A stretch of DNA of 64,000 nucleotides, from contig NZ_FXBM01000002.1 of assembly GCF_900177245.1 (NCBI RefSeq), positions 186,001-250,000 on the forward strand. The letters are read 5' to 3'. Numbering within the stretch: the first letter of the stretch is position 1; each line of letters starts with the position of its first letter. This document shows, piece by piece, positions 32,387 to 50,773 of this stretch. The translations under genes and the position numbers were made by a program. The notes under the pieces were generated by a model that saw only the letters and a list, made by a program, of their open reading frames with translations, ran no database searches and had not been told where the DNA came from. The DNA is from Rathayibacter oskolensis (GTDB taxonomy: Bacteria > Actinomycetota > Actinomycetes > Actinomycetales > Microbacteriaceae).

Positions 32387-32417
32387 CCCGGCGGCTCCAC
32401 TGCTCCGAGAACGCAAG

Positions 32418-32450: not shown

Positions 32451-32496
32451 TCTGGATTGCGGCCCGCCGTCGAGGCGCGGGCACGGCGGCGAGTGT

Positions 32497-32539
32497 GCAG
32501 GAGTTGTCGTACTCGGTGGTCGAGTACGACAACTCCTGC
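32497..32539. repeat. REP-like palindrome, copy 3
   Basis: A perfect 19-bp inverted repeat (32497-32515 and 32521-32539, loop GTGGT). Its outer right flank, CCTGCGTTCTCGG, is the reverse complement of the left flank of copy 2 with one mismatch, so copies 2 and 3 together make a larger nested inverted repeat spanning 32405-32547. Confidence 0.88.
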
Positions 32540-32579
32540 GTTCTCGGCGGAGGGGGCGGGCTCGCGGGACGGGGTGCGG

Positions 32580-33842
32580 TCAGGCGTCGAAGCGCACCAG
32601 GCGCACGCCGTGCGGCTCGACCTCCAGGGGCACGGCGCCGTCGATCACGTCGAGGCGCGCGCCGCTCCAGACGTCGACCGGGGTGCCGGTGACGCCGAGG
32701 TCGGCGAGGTGCGCCCTCAGCGTGGTCCCGGCAGCGCCCAGCCAGAACACAGCGCGCCACTCGACGGGGCCCTGCGACGCGGCCCAGACGACGAGGTCGC
32801 CGTCGCGCACGATCTCGCGGCTCGAGTCGCTGCTGAGCAGCGCGAGCACGTCGTCGTTCGTGAGCAGCTCGAGGGTGTCGGCCGGAGTGTCGGGCAGATG
32901 CCCGCCCATCATCAGCGGTGAGCGCATGATGCACCAGAGCGTCACCAGGGTGCGCTGCTCGGCAGGCGTGAACCGCGAGAGCCGGTCCTCGCCGACGTGG
33001 GCGCGGATCCCGATGCGGCCCAGCGGCAGCATGTCGGCGTCGGCCCACGCGCCCAGGCGCTGGTGCGGAGCCCAGCGCGCCGCGCGCTGGAACTGCTCGT
33101 GGAGCGCGGACCAGTCGTCCCAGAAGTCGTCCGAGATCCGCCACAGCTGCGCGTTCTGCCGCAGCACGTCGAGGTTCTCGAGCGAGAGCTGCTTGCCCGG
33201 CGAGAGGCTCAGGGTCATCGGCCGCCCGGAGGCGTCGACGGCTCGCGATATCGCGGCGATCTCGTCGGCCTGGATCGGCGGGTAGAGCACGTCGTCGAGC
33301 TTGACGAAGTCGACCCCCCACGACGCCAGCTGCGCGAGCACCGAGTCGTAGTACTCCTGAGCCCCGGGTGCGGTCATGTCGACGCCGAAGTTGTCGGGGT
33401 TCCACGGGCAGACGTTCGAGCGGTCGGCGATGTCGGCGCAGGTCGCGGTCGAGCCGAGGATCGGGAGGCGCTCCTCGGCCGCGCGCCGCGGCACGCCCCG
33501 CATCAGGTGCACCCCGAAGCGGAGCCCGAGGGCGTGCACCCGCGCTGCCAGCGCCGTGAACCCGCCCTCTCTCGCGGAGGGGAAGCGGCCGACGGCGGGC
33601 TGGGGCCGCCCCCAGTCGTCGAGGACGGGTGCCGACACCTCCCGGTAGTCGGCCGTTCCCGGGTCGGGCTCGTACCACTGGATGTCGACGACGACCGTGT
33701 CCCAGCCGTGCGGGAGCAGGTGCTCGGCCAGGAACTCGGCGTTCGCCACGACCTCGGCCTCGGTGACGGAGGCGCCGAAGCAGTCCCAGCTGTTCCAGCC
33801 CATCGGCGGGCGGAGGGCGGCGCGGACGCGCTCGGCCCTCAC
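32580..33842 (-). CDS. Glycoside hydrolase family 27 (alpha-galactosidase-like)
   Basis: A 420-residue retaining exo-glycosidase. The GH27 opening is clear (PPMGWNSWDCFGASVTEAEVVANAEFLAEHLLPHGWDTVVVDIQWYEP), with the nucleophile Asp in WGVDFVKLDDVLYP and the acid/base Asp in LWRISDDFWDDW. A beta-sandwich domain closes the C-terminus. GH27 members cleave alpha-galactosides or beta-L-arabinopyranosides. No signal peptide. GTG 33842 overlaps the stop of the upstream arabinofuranosidase (GTGA), so expression is coupled. Its 3-prime end faces the aldo/keto reductase with the palindromes in between. Confidence 0.9.
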   Translation of the reverse strand: MRAERVRAALRPPMGWNSWDCFGASVTEAEVVANAEFLAEHLLPHGWDTVVVDIQWYEPDPGTADYREVSAPVLDDWGRPQPAVGRFPSAREGGFTALAARVHALGLRFGVHLMRGVPRRAAEERLPILGSTATCADIADRSNVCPWNPDNFGVDMTAPGAQEYYDSVLAQLASWGVDFVKLDDVLYPPIQADEIAAISRAVDASGRPMTLSLSPGKQLSLENLDVLRQNAQLWRISDDFWDDWSALHEQFQRAARWAPHQRLGAWADADMLPLGRIGIRAHVGEDRLSRFTPAEQRTLVTLWCIMRSPLMMGGHLPDTPADTLELLTNDDVLALLSSDSSREIVRDGDLVVWAASQGPVEWRAVFWLGAAGTTLRAHLADLGVTGTPVDVWSGARLDVIDGAVPLEVEPHGVRLVRFDA

Positions 33843-36160: not shown

Positions 36161-37671
36161 GCGAGCTCCAGTGAGAGGGTCGCGAACGAGTGCGGCGGGA
36201 GCGTCACGCGCAGCCCCGTCGCCGTCGTCTCGAAGCCGTCGAACGCGACGGGGCTCACGGCGTCCGCGTCGCCCGGGCGGTTGTGCGCGTCGGGCCGGTC
36301 GGCGGTGAGGAGGCGACCGGTCGCGCCGGCCACCGATCCGCCGCGGAAGTCGAGGTCGATCTCGAGCGGCGCGTCGAGGTCGACGTTGGTGAGCGAGACG
36401 AGGACGCGGCCGTCCCTGGTGCTCGCGGAGGCGGAGGCGACCGGGATCTCGCGGCCGTCGACGGTGTGCGTCGGGCCGACGACCGTGGTCGGCAGGACCG
36501 TCGCCTCGTGGTGCCCCTTGTTCATCTCGAAGACGTGGTAGGTGGGGGTGCGCACCATCTCGCCTCCGTCGGGGTCGGTCAGCAGCATCGCCTGCAGCAC
36601 GTTCACCGTCTGCGCGATGTTCGCCATCGTCAGCCGGTCGGCGAAGGAGTGGAACACGTCGAAGTGCCAGGCCGCGACCATCGCGTCGCGGACGGTGTTC
36701 TGCTGGAAGAGGAAGCCGGGGTGCGTGCCGGGCTCGACGTCCCACCACGTGCCCCACTCGTCGAGCACCATCCCGTAGGTCTTCGCGGGGTCGTAGACGT
36801 CCATCACCGCGGCGTGCGAGCGCAGGAGCTCCTCGATGCCCTGCGCCGCGACGATGGTGCTCCAGTAGGTGTCGGCGTCGAAGTCGGTGGCGCTGCCCTT
36901 CGCCGACCAGCTTCCGCCGATCGTGTAGTAGTGCACCGAGACCGCCTCCCACGGGACGGAGGAGAAGGGGTGCGCCCCGATCTCGGGGATGACCTGCATG
37001 AGCGTCTCGGTCCAGGCGGTGTCGGCTCCATCGGCGCCCGCGGCGATGCGGTGCAGCGGAGTGTCGTTGCCGCTCTGGCAGAACGTGCCGAACTGCCGCG
37101 CGAGGTCGGCGTAGGCGCCGGCGCGCATGTTGCCGCCGCAGCCCCAGGTCTCGTTGCCGAGGCCCCAGTAGCGCACGGTCCACGGCTCCTCGCGGCCGTT
37201 CGCGCGGCGGAGGTCGGCCATCGGGCTCTTCCCCGCACCGGTGAGGTACTCGACCCAGTCGGCCATCTCCTGCACCGTGCCCGAGCCGATGTTGCCCGAG
37301 ATGTAGGCGTCGGCGCCGAGCAGCTCGCAGAGCGCCATGAACTCGTGCGTGCCGAAGGAGTTGTCCTCGGCCACCCCGCCCCAGAGCGTGTTGATCAGGC
37401 CCGGTCGCTCCTCGCGCGGACCGATGCCGTTGGTCCAGTGGTAGCGGTCGGCGAAGCAGCCGCCCGGCCAGCGCAGGTTCGGGATGTCGAGCGCCTTGAG
37501 CGCCTCGACCACGTCGAGGCGGATGCCTCCGACGTTCGGCACCGGCGAGCCCTCGCCGACCCAGAAGCCGTCGTAGATGCAGCGCCCCAGGTGCTCGGCG
37601 AAGTGCCCGTAGAGGTGCTTGCTGATGGTCGCGCCCGGTCGGTCGAGATCGACGGTGATGGTGGTGTTCAC
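36157..37671 (-). CDS. GH51 alpha-L-arabinofuranosidase
   Basis: A 504-residue retaining exo-enzyme, the usual bacterial AbfA length. It shows ISKHLYGHFAEHLGRCIYDGFWVGEGS, RWPGGCFADRYHWTNGIGPREERP, the acid/base Glu in WGLGNETWGCGGNM and the nucleophile Glu in GMVLDEWGTWWDVEPGTHPG, plus the C-terminal sandwich. It releases L-arabinose from arabinan or arabinoxylan oligomers. There is no signal peptide. GTG 37671 has GGAG six bases upstream. It lies between the GH36 and the long GH51 gene on the same strand. Confidence 0.93.
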   Translation of the reverse strand: MNTTITVDLDRPGATISKHLYGHFAEHLGRCIYDGFWVGEGSPVPNVGGIRLDVVEALKALDIPNLRWPGGCFADRYHWTNGIGPREERPGLINTLWGGVAEDNSFGTHEFMALCELLGADAYISGNIGSGTVQEMADWVEYLTGAGKSPMADLRRANGREEPWTVRYWGLGNETWGCGGNMRAGAYADLARQFGTFCQSGNDTPLHRIAAGADGADTAWTETLMQVIPEIGAHPFSSVPWEAVSVHYYTIGGSWSAKGSATDFDADTYWSTIVAAQGIEELLRSHAAVMDVYDPAKTYGMVLDEWGTWWDVEPGTHPGFLFQQNTVRDAMVAAWHFDVFHSFADRLTMANIAQTVNVLQAMLLTDPDGGEMVRTPTYHVFEMNKGHHEATVLPTTVVGPTHTVDGREIPVASASASTRDGRVLVSLTNVDLDAPLEIDLDFRGGSVAGATGRLLTADRPDAHNRPGDADAVSPVAFDGFETTATGLRVTLPPHSFATLSLELA

Positions 37672-37721
37672 GAAGGACTCCGTTGTGATCGTGGTCGAGG
37701 TGGCGGGGCCGGGTCGTGCGC

Positions 37722-39920
37722 TCAGGCGTCGACGCGGACGAGACGCAGCACGAGCACCCTGTCGGGATGGAAGGTGGGGAGGTCGAGGCCCGCCTCGCGC
37801 AGGAGGCTCCCCGAGTACGAGGGCGCGTCGGCGTCGCTGTCGAGCGCGACGGTCGCCTCCAGCCAGTGCGGGCTCAGCCAGCCGGGGCCGAGCGACTCCG
37901 GCCGCGCCGCCTCGACGCGGTACCGCGCCTCGGGCAGCAGACCGGGCAGCCGGAGGCGGCGCCGCGAGTCCGCGGACAGAGCGGGCGTCATCACCGTGTA
38001 GAGCGCCTCCGAGCCGTCGACGGCGACGACGCCCCGGAGCGAGGGCGCGTCGGGGTCGAAGTCGCCGTCGCCGACGACGCGCCCGGTGGCGAGCAGCCCG
38101 CGGTGCTCCTTGAACGAGGCGATCCAGGAGGCGAGGACGCCGGCCTCGTTGTCGGTGAGCTCGCGGATGTCCCACTCGATGCCGAAGTGGCCGAGGAACG
38201 CGACGGCGCAGCGCGTGTGCAGGTCGCTGGTGCGGCCGGTGACCGAGGACACCGTCGAGGCGACGTGGGAGCCGAGCATCTCGGGCGGGACGAGGAGCCC
38301 CGTCCAGCGGAGCATCCTCGAGCGGTCGAGCGGATCCTGGTTGTCGGAGGTGTGCACCCGGTCGGTGCGCTCGAGGATCCCGAGGTCGACACGTCCGCCG
38401 CCCGAGGCGCAGCTCTCGATCTCGAGCTCGGGGTGCCGCGCGCGCAGCTCGTCGAGCAGGCGGTAGAGGGCGAGCGTCTGCTCGTGCACGGCTGCGGTGC
38501 CGGTCGCCGGGTGGCCGGCGTCGATCAGATCGCGGTTGTGGTCCCACTTGAGGTAGGCGACGTCGAGGTCGGTGACGAGGCCGTCGAGGGTGCCGAGGAT
38601 GTGCGCGTACGCGTCGGGGTTGGTGAGGTCGAGGACCTGCTGGAAGCGGAACCGCGGAGGCAGCTCGGCTCGGGCGCGGAGGATCCAGTCGGGGTGCGCG
38701 CGGGCGAGATCCGAGTCCTCGTTGATCATCTCGGGCTCGACCCAGAGGCCGAACTCCATGCCCAGGCCGCGGACGTGCTCGGCGAGAGGGCCGAGGCCGT
38801 CGGGCCACGAGGAGGGGTCGGGGGTCCAGTCGCCCAGGCCCGCCCGGTCGTCGTCGCGGCCGAGGAACCAGCCGTCGTCGAGGACGTACCGCTCGACGCC
38901 GAGAGCGGCGGCGCGGGTGGCGAGCTCGGCGAGGGTGGCGAAGTCCTGATCGAAGTAGACCGCCTCCCAGACGTTCAGGGTGACGGGGCGCGGGCGCCGC
39001 GACGAGCGCGATCGAGCCCGGAGGAAGGCGTGGTAGCGGGCGGCGGCGGCGTCGAGGCCCTCGCCGAACGAGCCGTACACCCACGGCGACGTGTAGCTCT
39101 CGCCCGAGGCGAGGCGGACCTCGCCAGGCAGGAGCAGCTCGCCGCCGCGGAACGCGAGGTGGCCGTCGGTGCGCTCGACCGCGTGCTCGTGGTCGCCTCC
39201 GATGCCGACGTGGCAGACCCAGACCTGGCCGGCTGCCGCGTCGAAGCCCGGGGTGCCGACCGCGACGACCGTGGTCGCGTCGAGCCCCGTGCGGCCGCGA
39301 CGGGAGGAGCGGGAGTGGGTGCCGACGGCGACCGGGTGCCGCTGGGGGATCTTCTCGGCGGCCCAGCGCCCCGAGAAGTCGAGGATCTCGCGCGCCGCCG
39401 TCGGTATGCGCAGCGCGGGATCCACCCCGACGATCTCCAGGTGGTCCGCGCCGTCGTTGCGGACGGTGACCCGGGTCCTGAGGAGACCCTGAGGCGAGAG
39501 ATCGATCTCCAGGACGACCCCGATCCCCATCTCGTCGTCGCTCGCCTCGACGACCGCCGTGCCGCTCCCGTGCTGCACGACGCCGCCCTCGGCGAGGCTC
39601 CCGCCGTCGACCGTGACGGAGGCGACCACCGGCCGCGGCGACCACCCGGCACCCGCGCGGTGCACCCTGAGGCCCGGCAGACCGCTCCATCCGGAGGCGT
39701 GCTCGGGCAGGATCGAGGGCTCGTAGGGGACATCGGAGACGCCGTCGATCCCCGTGCGGACAGGCGTTCCGGCGAAGGCGCGGAGCTCGTCGTCGCTCGC
39801 GTCGATCCGCGGACCCCAGTGCGCGATCACCGGCACCGCCCCTCCCGTCTGGGTGAGGAGGACGGACACGTCATCAGCGACGAGGTGGATCACCCGCGGG
39901 AAGTGCATGCGTTCATTCAT
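37722..39920 (-). CDS. GH36 alpha-galactosidase
   Basis: A 732-residue enzyme. An N-terminal beta-sandwich leads into the barrel with VTLNVWEAVYFDQDFATLAELATRAAALGVERYVLDDGWF, the Glu/Asp-rich FGLWVEPEMINEDSDLARAHPDW, the nucleophile Asp in VAYLKWDHNRDLID and the acid/base Asp in RVHTSDNQDPLDR. This is the classic GH36 set; it removes terminal alpha-galactose (raffinose-type or galactan side chains). ATG 39920 is followed by an alternative ATG at 39908; neither has a clear ribosome-binding site. It is divergent from GH127 across 64 bases containing palindromes. Confidence 0.92.
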   Translation of the reverse strand: MNERMHFPRVIHLVADDVSVLLTQTGGAVPVIAHWGPRIDASDDELRAFAGTPVRTGIDGVSDVPYEPSILPEHASGWSGLPGLRVHRAGAGWSPRPVVASVTVDGGSLAEGGVVQHGSGTAVVEASDDEMGIGVVLEIDLSPQGLLRTRVTVRNDGADHLEIVGVDPALRIPTAAREILDFSGRWAAEKIPQRHPVAVGTHSRSSRRGRTGLDATTVVAVGTPGFDAAAGQVWVCHVGIGGDHEHAVERTDGHLAFRGGELLLPGEVRLASGESYTSPWVYGSFGEGLDAAAARYHAFLRARSRSSRRPRPVTLNVWEAVYFDQDFATLAELATRAAALGVERYVLDDGWFLGRDDDRAGLGDWTPDPSSWPDGLGPLAEHVRGLGMEFGLWVEPEMINEDSDLARAHPDWILRARAELPPRFRFQQVLDLTNPDAYAHILGTLDGLVTDLDVAYLKWDHNRDLIDAGHPATGTAAVHEQTLALYRLLDELRARHPELEIESCASGGGRVDLGILERTDRVHTSDNQDPLDRSRMLRWTGLLVPPEMLGSHVASTVSSVTGRTSDLHTRCAVAFLGHFGIEWDIRELTDNEAGVLASWIASFKEHRGLLATGRVVGDGDFDPDAPSLRGVVAVDGSEALYTVMTPALSADSRRRLRLPGLLPEARYRVEAARPESLGPGWLSPHWLEATVALDSDADAPSYSGSLLREAGLDLPTFHPDRVLVLRLVRVDA

Positions 39921-39925
39921 ACCGT

Positions 39926-39961
39926 CGATCGAGACGTGAGTACAGTGAGAGATCGATCTCG
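39926..39961. promoter_or_regulatory. Paired palindromes between GH36 and GH127
   Basis: GTCGATCGAGAC (39926-39936 region) and the perfect palindrome GAGATCGATCTC (39950-39961) occupy almost the whole 64-bp gap. TACAGT (39942-39947) between them is a -10 candidate for GH127. The second palindrome resembles the GAGATCGATATCTC site before the importer, suggesting shared control. Confidence 0.5.
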
Positions 39962-39984
39962 ATCAACGAAGAGGAGCTCCCATC

Positions 39985-41814
39985 GTGCTGTCGCAGCTGG
40001 CCCCGGAGGACACCCGTCTCGAGGGCGGCGTCTTCGATCGCCGCCGCCGTCTGAACCGCGCCTACCTGGTCTCGCTGCAGGATGCGGCGCTGCTGCAGAA
40101 CTTCCTCCTCGAGGCCGGGATCGGCGACCAGAGCTGGCACCTCACCCCCTCGAAGGACACTCCGGAGTCGCGCGGTCTCGACCGCCACTGGGGCTGGGAG
40201 ACGCCCGGCGCCCAGCTTCGCGGCCACTTCCTCGGGCACTGGCTCTCGGCCGCCGCGCGCGAGGCCGCGGTGACCGGCGACCGCCTGCTCCTGGCCCGGG
40301 TCGACTCCGTGCTCGACGGCCTCGAGGAGTGCCAGGTCGCCAATGGCGACGGCTGGATCTGGGCGATCCCGCCCACCTTCCTCCGCCGCCTCGCCGAGGG
40401 ACGGCCGATCTGGGCGCCGCAGTACGCGATGCACAAGACGCTGATGGGGCTCGTCGACGTGCACCGCGACCTCGGTGACGAGCGGGCCCTCCGGTTGGCC
40501 GTGAACGCCTCCGCCTGGATCCTCGACTGGGTCCGCGGGTTCGACGACGACGCGTTCCAGGTGATCCTCGACGTCGAGACCGGCGGGATGCTCGAGGTCT
40601 GGGCCGACCTGCTCGAGGCGACGAGCGATCCCGTCTTCAGCGAGCTGCTCGAGCGCTACTACCGCCGCGACTTCTTCGACGGCCTGCTCGAGGGCCGCGA
40701 CATGCTGACGAACCGGCACGCGAACACCACCATCCCCGAGGTGCTCGGCGCCGCGCGAGCATACGAGGTCACCGGCGACGAGCGCTGGCGGCGCATCGTC
40801 GAGGCCTACTGGGAGCAGGCGGTGACCCTGCGCGGCACGTTCTGCACCGGGGGCCAGACCTCCGGCGAGATCTGGACGCCTCCGTTCGAGTTCGCCGCCC
40901 GCCGCGGCGAGAAGACGCAGGAGCACTGCGGGGTCTACAACATGATCCGCCTCGCCGACGTGCTGCTGCGCTGGACCGGCGAGCTCTCCTACGCCGACTA
41001 CATCGAGCGGAACCTCTACAACGGGATCCTCGCCCAGCAGAACCCCGAGACCGGCATGGTCGCCTACTTCCTCCCGCTCGAGGGCGGAGCCCGCAAGGAC
41101 TGGGGCAGCCCGACGGAGGACTTCTGGTGCTGCCACGGCACGCTGGTGCAGGCGCACACGCGCCACTCCGGCCTGGTCTTCTACCTGGGTGACGACGGCG
41201 AGCTCACCGTCGCGCAGCACATCGGCGCGCGGGCCCGGGTGGCGACTCCGCTCGGCGTGGTGGCCGTGCGGCTCGAGGTGCTCGACGACGCCGGCTACGT
41301 CGGGCCCGACGCGAACGCGGGGGAGGCGGGCGACGCGCACCGCCCCTCCGCCTCACGGCTGCGCGTCGAGATCGAGTCGGAGGAGGGGGTCGCCCAGCGG
41401 GTCCGCGTGCGGATCCCCGAGTGGGTGACCGGCGAGCCCGCCGTCGCCGGCGACGACCGGGTCGAGCGCGTCGACGGCGCTCTGGTCATCGCCCACCCCG
41501 GCGGGCGGACGAGCGTGGACCTCGCCTTCCCCCTCGCCGTGCGCGTCGTGCCGATCCCCGACGAGCCGACCACGGTCGCGTTCGTGGAGGGGCCCGTGGT
41601 GCTCGCGGGTCTCGTCGATCGCGAGGTGGCCCTCCGGGGCGAGGTGCCGACGGCCGCGCTGCTGCTCGCTCCCGACAACGAGCGCCAGTGGACGCAGTGG
41701 CTCGGCGGGTACCGCACGGTCGGGCAGCCCGCGGCGATCCGCTTCCGCCCGGTGCACGAGATCGTCGACGAACCCTTCTCGCTCTACTTCCCGGTCCTTC
41801 CGGCCGGGAGCTGA
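39985..41814 (+). CDS. GH127 beta-L-arabinofuranosidase
   Basis: A 609-residue (alpha/alpha)6-barrel enzyme. The family's metal-binding catalytic set is visible: Glu and Cys in KTQEHCGVYNMI (near residue 310) and the Cys pair in EDFWCCHGTLVQAHTR (near residue 378), the second of which carries the nucleophile in characterised members. HANTTIPEVLGAARAYEVTGDERW is another conserved block. It removes beta-L-arabinofuranose, as on hydroxyproline-rich plant glycoproteins. GTG 39985 has GAGGAG upstream. No signal peptide. An MFS gene and the unassigned glycosidase-like gene follow on the same strand. Confidence 0.92.
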   Translation: MLSQLAPEDTRLEGGVFDRRRRLNRAYLVSLQDAALLQNFLLEAGIGDQSWHLTPSKDTPESRGLDRHWGWETPGAQLRGHFLGHWLSAAAREAAVTGDRLLLARVDSVLDGLEECQVANGDGWIWAIPPTFLRRLAEGRPIWAPQYAMHKTLMGLVDVHRDLGDERALRLAVNASAWILDWVRGFDDDAFQVILDVETGGMLEVWADLLEATSDPVFSELLERYYRRDFFDGLLEGRDMLTNRHANTTIPEVLGAARAYEVTGDERWRRIVEAYWEQAVTLRGTFCTGGQTSGEIWTPPFEFAARRGEKTQEHCGVYNMIRLADVLLRWTGELSYADYIERNLYNGILAQQNPETGMVAYFLPLEGGARKDWGSPTEDFWCCHGTLVQAHTRHSGLVFYLGDDGELTVAQHIGARARVATPLGVVAVRLEVLDDAGYVGPDANAGEAGDAHRPSASRLRVEIESEEGVAQRVRVRIPEWVTGEPAVAGDDRVERVDGALVIAHPGGRTSVDLAFPLAVRVVPIPDEPTTVAFVEGPVVLAGLVDREVALRGEVPTAALLLAPDNERQWTQWLGGYRTVGQPAAIRFRPVHEIVDEPFSLYFPVLPAGS

Positions 41815-41858
41815 CAGTCAGGACTCCCTCTCCCCATGACCTCCCGCCCGGTGCGTCG

Positions 41859-43112
41859 ATGACCGCCGCTGCCGCCGCCCGCGACGCCGCGATCCCCCGC
41901 TCTCGCCTCCTCCTCCCGATCTTCGCGATGCTCGTCGGGTTCGGCCCCCTGACCATCGACCTCGTCCTTCCCTTCCTGCCGTCGCTGCAGAGCGACCTCG
42001 ACGTCTCGGTCGCGACGGCGCAGCTCGTCGTGACAGGAGCGACCTTCGGCTTCGCCGCCGGCCAGCTCGTGTCGGGGCCCCTCAGCGACGCGGTCGGGCG
42101 CAAGTGGCCGCTCGGAGTCTCGGCCGCGCTGCACATCGCGGCGAGCCTGGTGGCGGCCACGACCAGCGAGACGGCCGTGCTGCTCTCGGCGCGCTTCGTC
42201 CAGGGCGCGGCCTGCACCGCGGCCGGAGTCGTCGTCACCGCGATCGTCCGCGACCTCTACAGCGGCAAGCGGCTGGTGACGATGCTCGCCAACCTCGCGG
42301 TGATCGTGTCGGTCTTCCCGATCCTCGTCCCCTCGGTCGGCGCGCAGCTCACCAAGATCATCGACTGGCGCGGCTCCTTCCTCGCCGTCGCGGTGTGGGG
42401 AGCGGTGGCGACGGCCGTCGCGCTCGTGGTGCTGCCCGAGACGCTGCCTCCCGAGCGTCGTCACCAGGGCGGGCTCGGCCCGTCCCTGCGCAACTCCTTC
42501 GGGATGCTGCGGCGGCCGCGCGTGATCGCGCTCGCCGCGGCGTCGGCCGCTGGCTGGTCGGTCGGGTTCGCCTACCTCGCCACCGCGCCGTTCCTCTACA
42601 CGAACGTGTACGAGGTCGGGCCCGATCTCTACGGGCTCCTGTTCCTCGCCACCTCGCTCGTGACGATCGCCGTGGGGCAGACGACCGGGCGGGTGATCGT
42701 GCCGCGGTTCGGCCCGCGGTTCGCGATGATCGCCTCCGCGGTCGTCACGGCCCTCGGAGCCGTCGCGGTCGCGGCCCTCGCCTTCGCCGGAACGCCGCCG
42801 CTGCTCGTCGTCGTCGGCGGGCTCACCTTCGCCCTCGCCGGTCGCTCCCTCGGCTACGCCCCCGTGCAGTACCTCTCGCTGCAGGGCCCCTCGAGCGAGG
42901 CGGGCAGCGTCACGGCGATCCTCGGCACGGTCAGCTTCACGGCGGCCGGGCTCGTGATGCCGGTGATGGGCGTCTACGCGGAGGTGTCGCTCCTCCCGTT
43001 CGCCATCCTCCTGCTCGTCGCGGCCCTCGTGGAGGGCGTGGTGGCGCTGCTGTTCCGGCCGGGGTCGCGGCACTTCGACTCCGGTGCGACCCGACTCGAC
43101 GACGAGAGATGA
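41859..43112 (+). CDS. MFS transporter, Bcr/CflA (DHA1) type
   Basis: A 417-residue protein with 12 predicted TM helices. The family signature between TM2 and TM3 reads GPLSDAVGRKWPL, and TM1 contains FGPLTIDLVLPFLPSLQSDL, typical of the drug:H+ antiporter group 1. It may export a by-product or a toxic sugar analogue; family assignment alone does not show a sugar substrate. The start at 41859 has no good ribosome-binding site, but it is the only start that keeps TM1 intact. It ends one base before the next gene, so the two are co-expressed. Confidence 0.85.
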   Translation: MTAAAAARDAAIPRSRLLLPIFAMLVGFGPLTIDLVLPFLPSLQSDLDVSVATAQLVVTGATFGFAAGQLVSGPLSDAVGRKWPLGVSAALHIAASLVAATTSETAVLLSARFVQGAACTAAGVVVTAIVRDLYSGKRLVTMLANLAVIVSVFPILVPSVGAQLTKIIDWRGSFLAVAVWGAVATAVALVVLPETLPPERRHQGGLGPSLRNSFGMLRRPRVIALAAASAAGWSVGFAYLATAPFLYTNVYEVGPDLYGLLFLATSLVTIAVGQTTGRVIVPRFGPRFAMIASAVVTALGAVAVAALAFAGTPPLLVVVGGLTFALAGRSLGYAPVQYLSLQGPSSEAGSVTAILGTVSFTAAGLVMPVMGVYAEVSLLPFAILLLVAALVEGVVALLFRPGSRHFDSGATRLDDER

Positions 43113-43113
43113 G

Positions 43114-45321
43114 ATGACGATGGACGACTCCGTGCAGATCGCGAACGACGGCTGCGCCCTGCTGGTGCGCGGCGGCGGCATCGAGGTCAGGAGGGAGGGG
43201 CGCCTGCTCTACGCGAACCCGCGGCCGCTGTTCGTGACGGTGAAGACCGTCGCCGCGGTGAGCGAGTTCTGGGACGCCGCCTACGACGACGTCGTCGCCT
43301 CCGACGGCGAGGTCGAGGCGAGGGGGACTCTGACGGTGCCGTCGGGCTCCGTCTTCGCCTTCACCGACGTCTTCGCGCCGGCGGGCACGGGCTTCCGCGT
43401 GAGCCGCACGGTCACGGTGCTCGCGGAGGGGGACGACCTCGGCTTCTCGACGAAGATCTCCCTTCGGATGGTCGAGTCGGACGACGTCCGCGCCTACGAC
43501 TGCTTCGCGCCGGGGGTCCGCTACCGGCAGAACGAGTTCGCGCCCGGCGACGACCTCGACGACGAGTACTTCTGGCGGATGGAGACGCGGTACGCGCTCC
43601 CGGTGTTCGCGATGCAGCACCGGGAGTCGGGCGAGACCGTCGCGCTCTCGCGCTGGGCGGCCGACGTGACCCTGCCGACCGACGGCGTCGTCCGCTCCGA
43701 GAACTTCACCGACGCGGCCTGCACGGTCGGCTCGATCGGCATGAGCCGGCCCGAGAGCCGGACGCTGAACTACCTCTACTACGGGTTCGGCGTGCGCAAG
43801 GACCTCCCGATCGAACCGGCCGGGCTGTCGATCGACTACGTCTACCCGGGCGCCGACGGGCAGCTGCCGCTCGACAACCCCTACTCGGGGCTGGACTACG
43901 ACGAGGAGCCGATGCGGTTCCAGCGGATGAACCATCCCGTCTCGGTCGGGTTCGAGCAGCGCTACACCGTCGCCCTCACGGTCGGCCGCTACGACGGCTT
44001 CGCGGCGATGATGCGCGAGGTCTGGCGCGACGTCTACTCGCGCCTGCGCGACACCCTGTTCGAGGTCGACAACGAGCGCCACTACCGCAACGGGATGGAG
44101 ATCCTGAACCGGTGCACGCGGCCGTACGGCGACTCCTTCGGGCTGCCCTTCGCGTGCCAGCTGCCCGACATGGACGTCTCGAGCGTGTCGTTCCAGTTCG
44201 GGTTCGTCGGGCAGCAGCCGGGCATCGGCTACCAGCTGCTGCGCTACGGCGACCTCGAGGGTGTTCCCGAGGCGTTCGAGAAGGGCGTCGGCGTGGTCGA
44301 CTTCTGGGTGCGGACGGCGCAGACCCCGTCGGGTCTGCCGCGGATGTGCTGGAACCCGACCCTGCAGGACTTCGAGCCGTACCCGCACTACCTCCGGATG
44401 CTCGCGGACGGGGTCGAGGCGATCCTCGACGCCTACCTCCACCTGCGCGCGAAGGGGGACGAGCGGCCGGAGTGGCTGGAGTTCTGCACGCGCGCGGCCG
44501 ACTGGCTCGTGCGGGTGCAGAACGACGACGGCAGCTTCCACCGGGCCTACCACGCCGACGGCTCGGTGCGGATGGACTCCCGGTCGAACACGCCCAGCGT
44601 GATCCGCTTCCTGGTGCAGCTGCACCTCGTGACCGGCGATGCCCGCTACCGCGACGCTGCCGTCCGCGCCGGGGCCTGGACCTTCGAGAACAGCCACCGC
44701 ACGCTCGAGTACCGCGGCGGCACCTGCGACAACGCCGACATCCAGGACAAGGAGGCGGGCATCTACGCCCTCTTCGGATTCCTCGCCCTCTCCGACCTGA
44801 CCGGCGAGGACCGCTGGCTCGAGGGGGCGGTCCGCGCCGCCGACTACACCGAGACGTGGACCTACGCCTGGTCGTTCCCGGTGCGCACGATCCAGCCGAA
44901 GCACCCCTTCAACCAGTACTCGATCAGCGGTCAGAGCATCATCACCATCGGCGGCGGCGCGGACGTGTACATGGCGGCCTGCTCGTACACCTACTACCGG
45001 CTGCACCTGATCACCGGCGACGACCACTACCTCGACTTCGCGGAGTTCATCCACGCGAACACCCGGCAGTCGACCGACGTCGACGGCAGCACCGGCTACG
45101 CGATGCCCGGCCTCGGGCACGAGAGCGGCGACTTCACGAGCCAGACGCTGCAGAGCCACTACCACTGGCTGCCGTGGTGCACGTTCGTCGAGGTCGACCC
45201 GGCGTCGCGGCTGTTCGACACGTTCGGCGTCTACGAGATCGCCCAGGCGCAGCGCCTGCCGCCGGAGGACCGCGCGGCCCGGAACCGCATCTACGACACC
45301 TACGGCCGAGCGTCGCTGTGA
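43114..45321 (+). CDS. Unassigned (alpha/alpha)6-barrel protein, probable novel glycosidase
   Basis: A 735-residue cytosolic protein I cannot place in a named family. Residues ~1-270 are beta-rich (LLVRGGGIEVRREGRLLYANPRPLFVTVKTV... SIDYVYPGADG), like the N-terminal sandwich of several inverting glycosidases. Residues ~290-730 are helical hairpins with WNPTLQDFEPYPHYLRMLADGVEAILDAYLHL, TRAADWLVRVQNDDGSFHRAYHADGS and CDNADIQDKEAGIYALFGFLALSDLTGEDRWLEGAVRAADY, the pattern of six-hairpin barrels. CDNADIQDKEAG and GHESGDF carry clustered acidic residues that could be catalytic. It begins two bases after the MFS stop, at the end of the GH127 operon. An acid-base glycosidase, lyase or epimerase are all possible. 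Confidence 0.7.
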   Translation: MTMDDSVQIANDGCALLVRGGGIEVRREGRLLYANPRPLFVTVKTVAAVSEFWDAAYDDVVASDGEVEARGTLTVPSGSVFAFTDVFAPAGTGFRVSRTVTVLAEGDDLGFSTKISLRMVESDDVRAYDCFAPGVRYRQNEFAPGDDLDDEYFWRMETRYALPVFAMQHRESGETVALSRWAADVTLPTDGVVRSENFTDAACTVGSIGMSRPESRTLNYLYYGFGVRKDLPIEPAGLSIDYVYPGADGQLPLDNPYSGLDYDEEPMRFQRMNHPVSVGFEQRYTVALTVGRYDGFAAMMREVWRDVYSRLRDTLFEVDNERHYRNGMEILNRCTRPYGDSFGLPFACQLPDMDVSSVSFQFGFVGQQPGIGYQLLRYGDLEGVPEAFEKGVGVVDFWVRTAQTPSGLPRMCWNPTLQDFEPYPHYLRMLADGVEAILDAYLHLRAKGDERPEWLEFCTRAADWLVRVQNDDGSFHRAYHADGSVRMDSRSNTPSVIRFLVQLHLVTGDARYRDAAVRAGAWTFENSHRTLEYRGGTCDNADIQDKEAGIYALFGFLALSDLTGEDRWLEGAVRAADYTETWTYAWSFPVRTIQPKHPFNQYSISGQSIITIGGGADVYMAACSYTYYRLHLITGDDHYLDFAEFIHANTRQSTDVDGSTGYAMPGLGHESGDFTSQTLQSHYHWLPWCTFVEVDPASRLFDTFGVYEIAQAQRLPPEDRAARNRIYDTYGRASL

Positions 45322-45379
45322 CTGCGGGGGTGCGGGCCGGGCTCGCGGCGGTGGCGCCGGCGGGCGGTCGGTGGGGCGC

Positions 45380-46060
45380 TCACCCTCCGGGGTTCGAGCT
45401 CGAGTCGGTGCTGCTGAGGTGCGCCATGGCGTCGTAGAGCTGCTGATCGGTCATGGGCGGCTCCGGGATCGGGTGTGCGCGCTCGGCTCGGTAGGCGTCG
45501 AGCATCAGGTGCAGCTGCCGTCGCCAGGCGTCCGGCGCCGAGGTGCTCGTCGCGTCGATCATCCGGCCGTTCGACCAGATCAGGTTGATGATGTCCGCGA
45601 GGACGATGTCGGGGCGCACGCGGCCCTCGTCCTGGGCGCGACCGAGGACATCGGCGATCTGGAGGCACAGCCTGTCGTGGATCCGCTCGATCTCGGCATT
45701 GCCGGGGAACCGCCGAGACAGGAAGTCGTTGAAGCCGCGATCGCCCGCCTGCAGGCGGAACAGGTCCTCCAGGTAGGCGACGAAGCCCTCCCACGGGTCC
45801 TCGGCGTGCAGCCGCGCCTCGGCCCGGTCGAGGAACTCGCGCAGCCGCGGCTCGAAGGCCGCCGCCAGCAGATCGAGCCTGGTCGGGAAGTGGCGGTACA
45901 GGGTGCCGATGGCGACGCCGGCGTCGCGCGCGATCTGCTCGAGCGATGCGTCCACGCCCCGCGAGGCGAACTCCTTCTGCGCCGAGTCGAGGAGCCGAGC
46001 GCGACGCTCCTGCGCATCTCGACGCAGGCGTCGTGTCGTCGGGACCTCGCGCATGCTCAC
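45380..46060 (-). CDS. TetR family transcriptional regulator
   Basis: A 226-residue repressor: basic arm REVPTTRRLRRDAQERRARLL, helix-turn-helix GVDASLEQIARDAGVAIGTLYRHFPTRLDLLAAAF (residues ~35-69), then a TetR_C-type domain (ADVLGRAQDEGRVRPDIVLADIINLIWSNGRMID). GTG 46060 is preferred over ATG 46054 because TAGATT ends exactly 6 bases before it, giving a leaderless transcript. It is divergent from an NADPH-dependent reductase, and a 44-bp inverted repeat lies in the gap. Confidence 0.88.
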   Translation of the reverse strand: MSMREVPTTRRLRRDAQERRARLLDSAQKEFASRGVDASLEQIARDAGVAIGTLYRHFPTRLDLLAAAFEPRLREFLDRAEARLHAEDPWEGFVAYLEDLFRLQAGDRGFNDFLSRRFPGNAEIERIHDRLCLQIADVLGRAQDEGRVRPDIVLADIINLIWSNGRMIDATSTSAPDAWRRQLHLMLDAYRAERAHPIPEPPMTDQQLYDAMAHLSSTDSSSNPGG

Positions 46061-47101: not shown

Positions 47102-50100
47102 ATGCCCTCCACCCGCGCCCGCCGCCTGCGCGCCACCCTCCTGGCGGTGACCGCCGCCGTCGTGCTCGCCGTCGTCGGCACCGTCGTCCCCACGGCGAAC
47201 GCCGAGACCCCGTGCGCGACCGGGCAGAACGCCATCGTCTGCGAGAACGCGCGACCGGGCGCCGATCCCTCGGAGTGGGACGTCTCCGGCGCCGGCGACC
47301 CCTCGATCCAGGGCTACGCCACCGACATCAGCGTGAACGTCGGCCGGCGCGTCGACTTCAAGATCGACACCGACGCCGCGGACTACTCCGTCGACATCTA
47401 CCGCACCGGCTGGTACGGCGGGAAGGGCGCCCGGCTCATCGCCTCCGTCGAGCCGAGCGCCGCCCTCCCGCAGAACCAGCCGCAGTGCCTCTCGGACGTC
47501 ACCACCGAGCTCTACGACTGCGGCACCTGGGCCGTCTCGGCGGGCTGGGACGTGCCGAGCACCGCCGTGTCCGGCGTCTACGTCGCCCTGCTCACCCGCG
47601 CCGACACGGGAGGCCGGAGCCAGATCACCTTCGTCGTGCGCGACACCGCCAGCACCTCGGCCGTGCTCTTCCAGACCTCCGACACGTCGTGGCAGGCCTA
47701 CAACACCTACGGAGGCTCCAACTTCTACTCCGGCGGGGCGAACGGCCGCGCCTACAAGCTCAGCTACAACCGCCCGGTCACCACCCGCGGCGACAACGCG
47801 GGCCGCGACTTCTACTTCGCCAACGAGTACCCGCTCGTGCGCTTCCTCGAGCGCAACGGCTACGACGTCAGCTACTTCAGCGGCATCGACACCGACCGCT
47901 TCGGCTCGTCGCTGAAGCAGCACCGCACCTTCCTCTCGGTGGGCCACGACGAGTACTGGTCCGGCGCCCAGCGCGCGAACGTCACGGCCGCGCGCGACGC
48001 CGGCGTCCACCTCCAGTTCCTCTCGGGCAACGAGAACTACTGGCGCACCCGCTACGAAGCCTCGCCGACCGCGGGCGGTGCCGCGTACCGCACCGTCGTC
48101 ACCTACAAGGAGACCTGGGCGAACGCCAAGACCGACCCCGCTGCCGAGTCCACCGGCACCTGGCGCGACCCGCGCTTCGCCTCGGTGGTGAACGGAGGCG
48201 GCCTGCCCGAGAACGGCCTGGCGGGCACGCTCTACATGTCCAACTACTCCGACCTGCCCGTGACGGTCAGCGCCGCCGAGGGCAAGCTGCGGCTCTGGCG
48301 CAACACCTCCCTCACGGGGCTCGCCGCGGGCACGAGCGCCGCGCTCGCCCCGCACACGATCGGCTACGAGTCGAACGAGGATCTCGACAACGGCGCGCGC
48401 CCGCCGGGTCTGATCCGGCTCTCGACGACGACCGGCGCGGTCCCGGAGTACCTGCAGGACTTCGGCAACACCGTCGCGCCCGGCACCACCCGGCACAACC
48501 TCACGCTCTACAGGGCGGCGAGTGGCGCGCTCGTCTTCTCGGCCGGCTCCGTGCAGTGGACCTGGGGCCTCGACCAGGAGCACGACGGCGACGGCGCACC
48601 GGCCGACGTGAGGATGCAGCAGGCGCAGGTGAACCTCTTCGCCGACATGGGCGTGCAGCCCACCACGCTGATGACCGGTCTGGTCGCTGCGACGAAGAGC
48701 ACCGACACCACCCGCCCCACCGTCTCGATCACGACGCCCTCCGGCACCACCAGCAAGGCCAACGGGAGCATCGTGACGGTCTCGGGGACCGCGGCCGACG
48801 CCTCCGGGGGGCGGGTCGCGGGCGTGGAGGTCTCGACCGACGGAGCCACCTGGCACCCGGCGTCGGGCACCACGTCGTGGACCTACAGCTACGTGCTGCA
48901 CGGGACGGGCACCGGCACCATCCGGGTGCGCGCGGTCGACGACAGCGCGAACATCGGCACCGCGACGAGCCGGAGCGTCACCATCACCGGCACGGCCAGC
49001 GTCTTCGGCGCCGAGGTGCCGAAGACGATCGACTCCGGAGACAGCTCAGCGGTCACCCTCGGGCTGCGCTTCACGCCCACCGCCGACGGGTTCATCCAGG
49101 GCGTGCGCTTCTACAAGAGCTCCGCCAACACCGGCACGCACACCGGTGCGCTCTGGAACCTCGACCGCCAGCAGCTGGGCAGCCTCACCTTCGCGAACGA
49201 GACGGCGAGCGGATGGCAGACCGGCACGTTCGCCTCGCCCGTCGCCGTCACTGCCGGGACCCCGTACGTCGTCTCGTACACGACCGCGACCGGCCGCTAC
49301 TCGGCGGCGGAGTGGTTCTGGGCGAGCGCCGGCTACGACGCCGCACCGCTGCGGGTCGCCGGCGGCTTCGGCGCGGAGCCGGCGGGGCTCTACAGCACCG
49401 ACGGCGGTTTCCCCGCCGACAGCTACCGGGCGGGCAACTACTACGTCGACGCCGTCTACAGCACCGTCGACAGCACTCCGCTGAGCGTCGCGTCGCAGAA
49501 GCCGATCGCGGGCTCGTCGAGCGTCGCGCCCTCGACGAGCGTGTCGGGCGTGTTCTCGAAGGCCGTGACGTCGACCTCGGTGAAGATGACGCTGAAGACG
49601 GCCTCCGGCGCGATCGTGGCGGGCAGCACGGCCTATGCGACCGGCACCCGAACCGCCACCTTCACGCCCAGCGCCCCGCTCGCGGCGTCGACCACCTACA
49701 CCGCGACCCTCGCGGGAACCGCGACCGGAGGGGGGACCGTCACGGCCGGCGGCAGCTGGACGTTCACGACCCAGGCTCCCGACTCCGCCGTGGGGGTCTG
49801 CCCCTGCCGCCTCTTCGACGACTCCACGGCCCCCGGGATCGCGCAGGTCTCGGAGGGCACCCCGATCACCCTCGGAGTGCGCTTCGCGCCGACCGTCGAC
49901 GGCACCGTCACGAGCGTGCGCTTCTACAAGGGCCCCGGGAACACCGGGACCCACGTGGGGACGCTGTCGAACGCCGACACCGGAGCCGAGATCGGCCGGG
50001 CGACGTTCGTGGGCGAGAGCACGGGCGGCTGGCAGGAGGTCGTGTTCGCCACTCCGGTCGCCGTGACGGCCGGGACCGACTACGTGGCCGCCTACACGAC

Positions 50101-50773
50101 GACCACGGGGAACTACTCGGCCACGGTCAACGGCTTCGGATCCGGGGGCACGCGCGGCCCGCTCGTCACGGCCGGCGACTCCGGCGCGTACTCGTACAGC
50201 GGTGGCTTCGCCTCGTCGCGCTCCACCACGAACTACCTCGTCGACGTCACGTTCTCGCCGGCGGCGGTGAGCACCCCGACGCCGGCGCCGGCGCCCGCGG
50301 GTGCTCGCCTCTTCGACGGCGCGACGCCCGCGACCGCCTCCGTCGACGACTCGTCCTCGGTCGAGGTGGGGATGAGCTTCACCGTCTCCGCGGCGGGCAG
50401 CGCGACCGGCATCGCCTTCTACAGGGGCTCCCGCAACACCGGAACGCACGTCGGGTCGCTGTGGGACGCCTCCGGCACGCGGGTCGCTCAGGTGACCTTC
50501 AGGGGCGAGTCCGCGAGCGGATGGCAGAGCGCGGCGTTCGCGTCGCCGGTCTCGCTGACTCCGGGGGCGCGGTACACGGTGTCGTATCTCGCTCCGGCGG
50601 GGTACTACGCGGCGACCCCGTCCGGGCTCGCGTCGCCGGTCACCGCGGGTGCGCTGACCACGGCGTCCGCGCCCAACGGCGTGTACCGCTACGGGTCGGG
50701 CGGAGTGATGCCGACGTCGGCGTACAACAGCACGAACTACTTCGTCGACGTGTACTTCCAGGCGCAGGGGTAG
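47102..50773 (+). CDS. Secreted N,N-dimethylformamidase-like protein with three DUF4082 modules
   Basis: A 1223-residue secreted protein. Order: signal peptide (residues 1-33, ending ANA); N,N-dimethylformamidase beta-subunit-like domain ~50-520 (YRTGWYGGKGARLI, SVGHDEYWSGAQRANVTAARDAGVHLQFLSGNENYWR); Ig-like domain ~532-630; DUF4082 ~632-790; Big_5-like ~795-893; DUF4082 ~901-1055; Pro/Ala linker; DUF4082 ~1068-1223. The catalytic-like SGNE block suggests a cell-surface hydrolase, while DUF4082 modules probably bind carbohydrate. ATG 47102 is preceded by GAAAGG. The last 0.5 kb is duplicated at 55.2 kb. Confidence 0.85.
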   Translation: MPSTRARRLRATLLAVTAAVVLAVVGTVVPTANAETPCATGQNAIVCENARPGADPSEWDVSGAGDPSIQGYATDISVNVGRRVDFKIDTDAADYSVDIYRTGWYGGKGARLIASVEPSAALPQNQPQCLSDVTTELYDCGTWAVSAGWDVPSTAVSGVYVALLTRADTGGRSQITFVVRDTASTSAVLFQTSDTSWQAYNTYGGSNFYSGGANGRAYKLSYNRPVTTRGDNAGRDFYFANEYPLVRFLERNGYDVSYFSGIDTDRFGSSLKQHRTFLSVGHDEYWSGAQRANVTAARDAGVHLQFLSGNENYWRTRYEASPTAGGAAYRTVVTYKETWANAKTDPAAESTGTWRDPRFASVVNGGGLPENGLAGTLYMSNYSDLPVTVSAAEGKLRLWRNTSLTGLAAGTSAALAPHTIGYESNEDLDNGARPPGLIRLSTTTGAVPEYLQDFGNTVAPGTTRHNLTLYRAASGALVFSAGSVQWTWGLDQEHDGDGAPADVRMQQAQVNLFADMGVQPTTLMTGLVAATKSTDTTRPTVSITTPSGTTSKANGSIVTVSGTAADASGGRVAGVEVSTDGATWHPASGTTSWTYSYVLHGTGTGTIRVRAVDDSANIGTATSRSVTITGTASVFGAEVPKTIDSGDSSAVTLGLRFTPTADGFIQGVRFYKSSANTGTHTGALWNLDRQQLGSLTFANETASGWQTGTFASPVAVTAGTPYVVSYTTATGRYSAAEWFWASAGYDAAPLRVAGGFGAEPAGLYSTDGGFPADSYRAGNYYVDAVYSTVDSTPLSVASQKPIAGSSSVAPSTSVSGVFSKAVTSTSVKMTLKTASGAIVAGSTAYATGTRTATFTPSAPLAASTTYTATLAGTATGGGTVTAGGSWTFTTQAPDSAVGVCPCRLFDDSTAPGIAQVSEGTPITLGVRFAPTVDGTVTSVRFYKGPGNTGTHVGTLSNADTGAEIGRATFVGESTGGWQEVVFATPVAVTAGTDYVAAYTTTTGNYSATVNGFGSGGTRGPLVTAGDSGAYSYSGGFASSRSTTNYLVDVTFSPAAVSTPTPAPAPAGARLFDGATPATASVDDSSSVEVGMSFTVSAAGSATGIAFYRGSRNTGTHVGSLWDASGTRVAQVTFRGESASGWQSAAFASPVSLTPGARYTVSYLAPAGYYAATPSGLASPVTAGALTTASAPNGVYRYGSGGVMPTSAYNSTNYFVDVYFQAQG
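50250..50773 (+). repeat. Duplicated DUF4082 segment, copy 1 (3-prime end of the secreted gene)
   Basis: Matches 55187-55710 from CGTTCTCGCCGGC to the TAG stop. Over 50265-50773 (509 bp) I counted 4 differences; two more lie just before. The match stops exactly after the stop codon. The two copies are 4,937 bp apart, in the same orientation. Confidence 0.9.

What the first reader, a model, noticed from the sequence alone, without database searches (positions are those of the whole stretch)
43114..45321. Unassigned (alpha/alpha)6-barrel protein at the end of the GH127 operon: possible new glycosidase family
Seen: a 735-residue protein with a beta-rich N-terminal domain and a helical-hairpin C-terminal domain, no signal peptide, starting 2 bases after an MFS gene and downstream of GH127 on one strand. 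Known: many inverting glycosidases and lyases share this two-domain layout. Inferred: it acts on an arabinosyl or galactosyl oligosaccharide. I cannot link it to a named family; CDNADIQDKEAG and GHESGDF are candidate acidic active-site blocks.
Basis: partly seen in the sequence, partly recalled or inferred. Interest (0 to 1): 0.8.

Follow-up and report, generated by a model that had tools for sequence, protein, structure and literature searches.

The report
Unassayed XuaI-type sugar-cutting enzyme candidate
The gene encodes a two-domain protein whose published relative (XuaI) could not be purified intact and has no known function; relatives often lie beside enzymes that strip arabinose and acid groups from plant-fibre fragments, so it is probably an uncharacterised sugar-cutting enzyme for such side chains.

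Summary
Window 43114-45321 (+) encodes a 735-residue protein whose ATG starts 2 bases after the MFS stop codon. AlphaFold2 gives a confident two-domain model (pLDDT 85.4, pTM 0.90): a galactose-mutarotase-like beta super-sandwich (1-292), then an (alpha/alpha)6 barrel. It passes no Pfam or NCBIfam cut-off; a single-sequence PDB search gave nothing.

Its authors call XuaI "unknown function" and obtained only a little proteolysed protein. Relatives occur in Paenibacillaceae, Clostridia and a few Microbacteriaceae; the Microbacteriaceae copies, window included, form one clade nested among Paenibacillaceae, which suggests transfer. 44 of 80 loci show tested arabinofuranosidase-type hydrolases or esterases nearby; a carboxylesterase lies 5-66 bp upstream in 17.

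Best reading (0.55): a cytosolic, probably inverting exo-glycosidase acting on an arabinofuranose-based decoration of imported oligosaccharides, in an unassigned sequence family. Lyase or dehydratase rivals are weakened, not excluded: 5 of 12 XuaI-bearing genomes lack GH88/GH105. GH127, PL27 and GH154 membership fails at sequence level. Reaction, linkage and CAZy status are untested.

The parts
43114..45321 (+). XuaI-type protein, 735 aa (P0001)
   Evidence: Open frame; 68% identity over 720 aa to R. cellulolyticum XuaI; 47-84% to relatives in 80 genome loci
43114..43989 (+). N-terminal galactose-mutarotase-like super-sandwich, residues 1-292
44053..45225 (+). [quoted passage not shown]
44518..44538 (+). 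Loop alpha5-alpha6, QNDDGSF (residues 469-475), D472
   Evidence: D472 100% in 78 near rows; D in 10 of 12 distant rows
44722..44760 (+). Loop alpha7-alpha8, TCDNADIQDKEAG (residues 537-549): D539, D545, E547
   Evidence: All three 100% in 78 near rows; D or E at 539 in 12 of 12 distant rows, E at 547 in 11 of 12, D at 545 in 6 of 12
45115..45135 (+). Loop alpha11-alpha12, GHESGDF (residues 668-674), E670
   Evidence: E670 99% in near rows; E in 11 of 12 distant rows in the alignment, but the alignment placed T in the two Bacteroidales rows
41859..43112 (+). MFS transporter, Bcr/CflA-like, directly upstream
   Evidence: PF07690; TIGR00710 193.4 bits, under its 200.9 cut-off; present in 5 of 5 Microbacteriaceae loci
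39985..41814 (+). GH127 (beta-L-arabinofuranosidase family), with ExC and CC cysteine motifs
   Evidence: PF07944 279 bits; alignment; with the XuaI-type gene in 5 of 5 Microbacteriaceae loci
37722..39920 (-). GH36
   Evidence: PF02065 379 bits
36157..37671 (-). GH51-type arabinofuranosidase
   Evidence: PF06964 153 bits
33839..36160 (-). second GH51-type arabinofuranosidase
   Evidence: PF22848 261 bits
32580..33842 (-). GH27-type (Melibiase_2)
   Evidence: PF16499 74 bits
31565..32386 (+). aldo/keto reductase
   Evidence: PF00248
29135..31450 (+). GH3
   Evidence: PF00933, PF01915
25895..29135 (+). sugar ABC importer: putative binding protein (25895-27193, judged by eye from its lipoprotein-like start) and two permeases
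   Evidence: Gene calls; tblastn with permeases of relatives, 23-28% identity
24315..25334 (-). LacI-type regulator, 87% identical to one about 6 kb upstream of the XuaI-type gene in L011

Best explanation
The gene encodes a cytosolic carbohydrate-active enzyme, orthologous to XuaI, that most likely hydrolyses a glycosidic bond from the non-reducing end of an imported, arabinofuranose-decorated oligosaccharide. A mutarotase-like super-sandwich packs on an (alpha/alpha)6 barrel; barrel loops 5-6, 7-8, 9-10 and 11-12 plus a loop of the beta domain would line an acidic pocket, and two carboxylates (candidates D472, D539 or E547 with E670; E157 assisting) would act as general acid and base in a one-step inverting hydrolysis. 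SHOWN: gene, orthology, fold model, conservation, gene neighbourhoods. INFERRED: hydrolysis, inversion, the pocket, the acid/base pair, and the substrate. Most specific substrate guess: the feruloylated or acetylated arabinosyl side chain of xylan, after or beside the esterase, for example the beta-D-Xylp-(1->2)-L-Araf core of FAX/FAXG (about 0.2 on its own).
For: XuaI identity: in L106, markers HK, RR, binding protein, two permeases, GH51, GH43, GH39, a XuaH-sized esterase-group ORF and a SASA-type esterase lie in the published S R A B C D E G H J order, with a 732-aa ORF between the two esterases, the published length of XuaI, 68% identical to the window protein. The xua operon imports and dismantles arabinoxylodextrins; XuaH is a feruloyl/p-coumaroyl esterase and XuaJ an acetyl esterase of CE20 (PMC9675976, PMC11127375). 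Neighbours in the 80 loci (single-HSP tblastn, lower bounds): GH51 22, GH43 groups 13/5/3, COesterase 19, GH95 7, GH127 6, GH39 4, SASA-type 3; at least one of these in 44 of 80 loci, and in 35 of the 51 loci >=17 kb. COesterase is directly upstream, gap 5-66 bp, in 17 of 19 places, though 16 such genomes give only 1-8 PF00135 matches each. Four of 52 scanned other neighbours are PF00756 esterases. GH127 and MFS neighbours in 5 of 5 Microbacteriaceae loci. More distant relatives with F5/8C modules (L107) or ricin-type lectin (L091) point to a glycan-degrading enzyme. Fold. Conserved acids on the loops.
Against: No activity was found in print for any member (searches in Tried and rejected). The fold is shared with lyases, phosphorylases and isomerases, so it does not prove hydrolysis; the closest full-length fold match is a lyase family. 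None of the 9 genes called at 29135-45321 of the window matched an esterase family, so the feruloyl link is borrowed from Firmicutes. 36 of 80 loci show none of the tested GH or esterase markers, many being short contigs. Neighbour linkage can reflect the pathway rather than the reaction. No coordinates were available to check that the conserved acids face one pocket at a suitable distance. D617, invariant in near rows, is kept in only 4 of 12 distant rows, and D545 in 6.
Confidence: 0.55

Rival explanations
1. A lyase or dehydratase: like PL27 (Rha-GlcA lyase) or the former GH154 (glucuronate dehydratase), it would beta-eliminate at C4 of a uronate and leave a 4,5-unsaturated uronosyl end for GH88/GH105.
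Against: 5 of 12 XuaI-bearing genomes, R. cellulolyticum's included, have no PF07470 (GH88/GH105) match at E<=0.001. No sequence match to PL27 or GH154 structures. PF07470 was not among the 25 commonest of 84 families matched by 52 neighbours.
Confidence: 0.13
2. A sugar isomerase or 2-epimerase of the AGE superfamily type, acting on free sugars or reducing ends in the cytosol.
Against: Histidine H684 is not kept in 5 of 12 distant rows, whereas AGE enzymes use a histidine pair (recalled). AGE enzymes lack the N-terminal super-sandwich (recalled). Distant relatives with a signal-like N-terminus and F5/8C or lectin modules fit a glycan-degrading enzyme better.
Confidence: 0.1
3. A phosphorylase (GH94/GH65-like) that phosphorolyses xylobiose or an arabino-disaccharide in the cytosol.
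For: Cellobiose, lactose and chitobiose phosphorylases are among the top Foldseek hits to the full model. Xylobiose is left undegraded by the assayed Xua enzymes (PMC9675976), and XuaI could not be assayed.
Against: TM-scores 0.25-0.33 only; no sequence match at E<=10; no phosphate site was tested.
Confidence: 0.12
4. A distant, degenerate GH127 or GH76 member with a known reaction.
For: PF07944 24.8 bits against a 24.9 cut-off in P0001, and 40 of 41 members match at E<=0.1 (best 1e-8); PF03663 (GH76) in 32 of 41, best 2.1e-7. Profile A3 hits GH76 mannanases at E 7.5e-7.
Against: The best P0001 stretch to PF07944 is 29 residues of helical hairpin. GH127 profile comparison gives probability 1.6% (pairwise E 0.031). 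P0001 has no CC pair. The GH76 match covers about 72 residues.
Confidence: 0.05

Closest known systems
XuaI (Ruminiclostridium cellulolyticum xua operon, PMC9675976 and PMC11127375)
   Same: 68% identity over 720 aa, same length class (732 aa), no signal peptide reported, same kind of import-and-degrade locus with GH51
   Different: The window locus has GH127, GH36, GH27, GH3 and an MFS gene, and no esterase among the 9 genes at 29135-45321; XuaI lies between a feruloyl esterase and a CE20 esterase. Function of XuaI unknown.
PL27 L-rhamnose-alpha-1,4-D-glucuronate lyase BACCELL_00875 (5nok, 5no8)
   Different: 10-11% identity, no profile hit; its unsaturated product would need GH88/GH105, absent in 5 of 12 XuaI genomes
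GH127 beta-L-arabinofuranosidases
   Same: (alpha/alpha)6 barrel (recalled); the window's own GH127 is a neighbour
   Different: Domain order differs (recalled); no CC motif; profile comparison 1.6%
GH76 mannanases and AGE-type epimerases/isomerases
   Different: No N-terminal super-sandwich match in those rows (aligned range starts near residue 314); about 10% identity
GH94 phosphorylases, GH52, a GH15-type enzyme (dextran dextrinase), PL26
   Same: Among the Foldseek hits to the full model; sandwich followed by barrel (recalled)
   Different: 9-11% identity and low TM over the full chain
GH154 / glucuronate dehydratase (PMC12269599; 8OI4, 9O4U)
   Same: A family first filed as a hydrolase, with (alpha/alpha)6-type fold (fold recalled)
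   Different: BcGDH construct is residues 24-423; no sequence hit

Membership tests
XuaI orthologue group | Full-length sequence identity to XuaI | tested here: met
   68% over 720 of 735 residues; the R. papyrosolvens copy (L026, 732 aa) falls in the same tree
XuaI orthologue group | Locus with sugar importer and arabinofuranosidases | tested here: met
   GH51 x2, GH127 and ABC genes in the window
XuaI orthologue group | Adjacent carbohydrate esterase (frequent, not defining) | tested here: not met
   No esterase family matched among the 9 genes called at 29135-45321; directly upstream in 17 of 80 relatives' loci
GH127 (PF07944) | Score over the curated cut-off | tested here: not met
   24.8 against 24.9 bits, best stretch 29 residues
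GH127 (PF07944) | Cysteine/glutamate metal site (ExC and CC; role recalled) | tested here: not met
   No CC in P0001; its sole ExC lies in helix alpha5, whereas the window GH127 has both
GH76 (PF03663) | Score over the curated cut-off | tested here: not met
   15.5 against 25.9 bits for P0001
GH76 (PF03663) | Catalytic Asp-Asp pair in place | not testable with these tools
   No residue-level superposition available; the pair is known here only from PDB titles
PL27 | Sequence similarity to a founding member (BACCELL_00875 chain) | tested here: not met
   5nok/5no8 not among hits at E<=10 of phmmer or two profiles
PL27 | Two-domain sandwich + barrel fold | tested here: met
GH154 / uronate dehydratase | Sequence similarity to solved members (8OI4, 9O4U) | tested here: not met
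   Not among hits at E<=10
GH154 / uronate dehydratase | GH88/GH105 partner in the genome | tested here: inconclusive
   PF07470 absent in 5 of 12 XuaI-bearing genomes, present in 7 and in a 13th
AGE (GlcNAc 2-epimerase) superfamily | Pfam PF07221 over the cut-off | tested here: not met
   Not listed for P0001 at E<=10; only 6 of 41 members at E<=0.1, best 0.0021
New CAZy family | No assignment in CAZy | not testable with these tools
   CAZy/dbCAN not held. Pfam and NCBIfam give none over cut-off for P0001. The xua authors used CAZy in 2022 and reported unknown function
New CAZy family | Demonstrated activity of one member | not tested
   XuaI yielded only a small amount of proteolysed protein (PMC9675976)

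The most novel reading that the evidence does not exclude
XuaI and this protein found a new glycoside hydrolase family that cleaves a linkage no assigned family in these loci covers, inside feruloylated arabinosyl side chains of grass xylan (for example beta-D-Xylp-(1->2)-L-Araf), and the Microbacteriaceae acquired it from Paenibacillaceae and rewired it to GH127.
Probability: 0.22. Interest if true: 0.75.

Novelty: new variant of a known kind. Interest (0 to 1): 0.55.

Why it matters
Feruloylated arabinosyl side chains are a structural feature of grass arabinoxylans, and the one called FAXG is reported as ubiquitous to cereal grains (PMC4712305, abstract). A conserved protein of unknown reaction sits in the published arabinoxylan operon of R. 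cellulolyticum and in many similar loci of soil, gut and plant-associated bacteria. Naming its reaction would fill the open slot of that pathway and give a function to the relatives found here (424 confirmed in one scan). The orthologues listed here, one from the thermophile T. xylanilyticus, offer a way round the proteolysis that stopped the XuaI assay.

Tried and rejected
Rejected: GH127 assignment from the near-cut-off Pfam hit (cysteine motif and profile comparison). Rejected as membership: PL27 and GH154 (no sequence match). The antisense ORF as a gene.

Led nowhere: phages tblastn gave no match; phmmer of P0001 against PDB gave none; a promoter and terminator scan of 39700-45500 found no site; the distant Bacteroides relative against PDB gave three LanC-like hits at E 0.15-0.3; NCBIfam over 15 members gave only weak matches (best TIGR02474, 7 of 15, E 1.6e-4). 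Paper searches: 'XuaI' whole word gave 10 papers, of which two (PMC9675976, PMC11127375) are about this protein judging by titles; GH154 (17), new-GH-family/feruloyl, R. cellulolyticum/selfish, xylopyranosyl-feruloyl, PL27, Thermobacillus, Paenibacillus clusters and FAXG (131) listed, by titles and abstract starts, no assay of it. Subscription papers are not held. Passages of PMC7815789 named FA, FAX, FAXX and FAXG as esterase substrates. Families missing from fold tables were not used as proof. A Foldseek search of the N-domain alone could not be queued; only the VIA second look was obtained.

Weak points: naive longest-ORF gene calls fail in GC-rich loci, so neighbours were recounted by tblastn with at least half of the query in one HSP; the GH group also counted GH36, which changes no total. 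Rows dropped: searches left out 3 of 83 proteins outside 640-800 aa (L064, L074, L076); A4 holds 39 of 80 relatives plus P0001, chosen by hand; A5 holds 52 of 87 unannotated neighbours (of 136 collected, 49 belonged to groups annotated before). The tree used the quick method, with midpoint root, long branches L001-L003 and an unusual letter make-up in five rows, P0001 among them. In some searches only up to five candidates per genome were scored, so those prevalences are lower bounds. The ORF read as GH8 in L106 was not tested.
Full report
WHAT IS THERE. The frame 43114-45321 (+) codes for 735 residues. The upstream MFS gene ends in TGA at 43110-43112 and the ATG is at 43114, with another ATG at 43120. 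Upstream on the same strand lie GH127 (39985-41814) and MFS (41859-43112); diverging from them are GH36, two GH51-type genes and a GH27-type gene; further left are an aldo/keto reductase, a GH3, an ABC importer and a LacI regulator. The next called gene, 45380-46060, is on the other strand. The LacI protein is 87% identical to one about 6 kb upstream of the XuaI-type gene in Planctomonas (L011), which suggests that 24-45 kb is one system.

FAMILY SEARCHES. Pfam gives only sub-threshold matches (PF07944 24.8 bits with cut-off 24.9; PF03663 15.5 with cut-off 25.9). NCBIfam gives nothing near a cut-off, PDB sequences nothing at E<=10 by phmmer. Over 41 relatives PF07944 appears in 40 and PF03663 in 32 at E<=0.1, and a 15-row profile finds GH76 chains at E 7.5e-7 through about 72 residues. 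These are read as shared (alpha/alpha) repeats; that reading is inference.

RELATIVES. tblastn of plasmids found three distant relatives (Deinococcus, Segatella, Bacteroides). A scan of genome contigs gave 424 relatives among 589 pattern matches; the best 80 were kept, at 47-84% identity. In an 81-row tree the six Microbacteriaceae rows, window included, are one clade (SH-aLRT 100) among Cohnella and Paenibacillus rows, as expected if they acquired the gene from Paenibacillaceae; the root was drawn at the midpoint. The window protein pairs with that of Rathayibacter sp. Leaf185 (82-84% identity; support 90). Near-full-length matches: 5 of 199 Microbacteriaceae genomes (these may be the same genomes as the five loci above), 7 of 11 in the genus of R. 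papyrosolvens, and 15 complete plus one stop-interrupted copy in 197 Paenibacillaceae genomes.

LINK TO THE LITERATURE. PMC9675976 (abstract and passages seen) describes the xua operon of R. cellulolyticum: sensor, regulator, ABC importer, GH51, an 88-aa protein, GH43, GH8, GH39, esterase XuaH, XuaI (732 aa, unknown function) and esterase XuaJ. PMC11127375 (passages seen) shows XuaH to be a feruloyl/p-coumaroyl esterase and XuaJ an acetyl esterase and again calls XuaI unknown. XuaI was cloned, but only a small amount of proteolysed protein was obtained. Its ORFs and marker matches follow the published order: kinase, regulator, binding protein, two permeases, GH51, a small ORF, GH43, an untested 383-aa ORF where GH8 should be, GH39, a 265-aa ORF of the XuaH-sized esterase group, the 732-aa protein and a SASA-type esterase. 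The 732-aa protein is 68% identical to the window protein. So the finding's protein is an XuaI orthologue.

NEIGHBOURHOODS. In the 80 loci, by single-HSP tblastn (lower bounds): ABC permeases 41, GH51 22, carboxylesterase (PF00135) 19, GH43 groups 13, 5 and 3, GH95 7, GH127 6, GH39 4, SASA-type esterase 3; at least one of these enzymes in 44 of 80 loci and in 35 of 51 loci of 17 kb or more, hence none in 36 of 80 (families). The carboxylesterase is directly upstream with a gap of 5-66 bp in 17 of 19 places, while 16 such genomes give only 1-8 PF00135 matches each, fragments counted apart. Four of 52 other neighbours are PF00756 esterases. All five Microbacteriaceae loci keep GH127 and MFS with the gene, in two arrangements; no esterase family matched among the nine genes at 29135-45321 of the window. 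T. xylanilyticus, whose signal-less feruloyl esterase Tx-Est1 is known (PMC11127375 passage), has a carboxylesterase directly upstream of its copy; whether that gene is Tx-Est1 was not tested.

CONSERVATION. In 78 near rows D472, D539, D545, E547, D617 and E157 are invariant and E670 is 99%. Against 12 distant rows, D or E is kept at 539 in 12, at 157 in 11, E at 547 in 11 and at 670 in 11, D at 472 in 10; D545 is kept in 6 and D617 in 4. The earlier alignment put T at 670 in the two Bacteroidales rows, so that column is less sure. D472, D539, E547 and E670 lie on or at the ends of the loops between helices 5-6, 7-8 and 11-12 of the model, the side that carries the active site in (alpha/alpha)6 enzymes (recalled). 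Two distant groups carry CBM-like modules: four F5/8C domains in a Cohnella protein with a signal-like N-terminus and one inserted in a neighbouring relative (L107), and ricin-type lectin plus Big_4 in L091.

MECHANISM AND RIVALS. These facts favour a carbohydrate-cleaving enzyme acting on imported arabinofuranose-decorated oligosaccharides; inverting hydrolysis is common for this plan (recalled) and remains inference. The PL27- and GH154-like options need an unsaturated uronyl hydrolase: PF07470 is missing from 5 of 12 XuaI-bearing genomes, R. cellulolyticum's included, but it is present in the other 7 and in a 13th, Cohnella's, with 13 matches, so this weakens the option without excluding it. 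GH154 is itself a caution, because a family filed as hydrolase proved to hold dehydratases (PMC12269599; passages, some from its abstract, and section 8 seen). A phosphorylase reading is kept because xylobiose is left over by the assayed Xua enzymes.

VERDICT. Observation confirmed; interpretation partly supported: a real, conserved, unassigned two-domain protein, now tied to XuaI and to arabinoxylan side-chain metabolism. New-family status cannot be declared without CAZy and an activity.

Noticed in passing
L107:3828-17910 (Cohnella zeiphila): A second locus with two more distant relatives of the family around an apparent ABC importer and two-component system (judged by eye): one with a signal-like N-terminus and four F5/8C domains, one with an F5/8C domain inserted in the region of the alpha9-alpha10 loop.
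   Followed up: partly
L091:1-3738 (-): Distant relative in Microbacteriaceae with ricin-type lectin and Big_4 domains, possibly secreted; no Pfam family for its N-terminal catalytic-like part.
   Followed up: no
L021, L025, L031, L022, L027, L006, L011: IlvD/EDD dehydratase, DHDPS-type, aldehyde dehydrogenase and FAH-family genes beside XuaI-type genes, as in oxidative pentose or sugar-acid pathways.
   Followed up: no
L092-L097: A second group of about 650-770 aa Microbacteriaceae proteins with the motif GAPEDVDLAPTSEDGY at the same place and no Pfam family over cut-off.
   Followed up: no
G372:C21:42971-44440: A Paenibacillaceae copy of the family with one in-frame TGA, apparently degenerate.
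   Followed up: no
window 47102-50773 (+): Large exported-looking protein of 1223 aa with three similar repeats towards its C-terminus (seen by eye); not analysed.
   Followed up: no
window 23431-24318 (-): Nucleoside-hydrolase-like protein (PF01156 65.6 bits, PF07632) next to the LacI gene of the locus.
   Followed up: no
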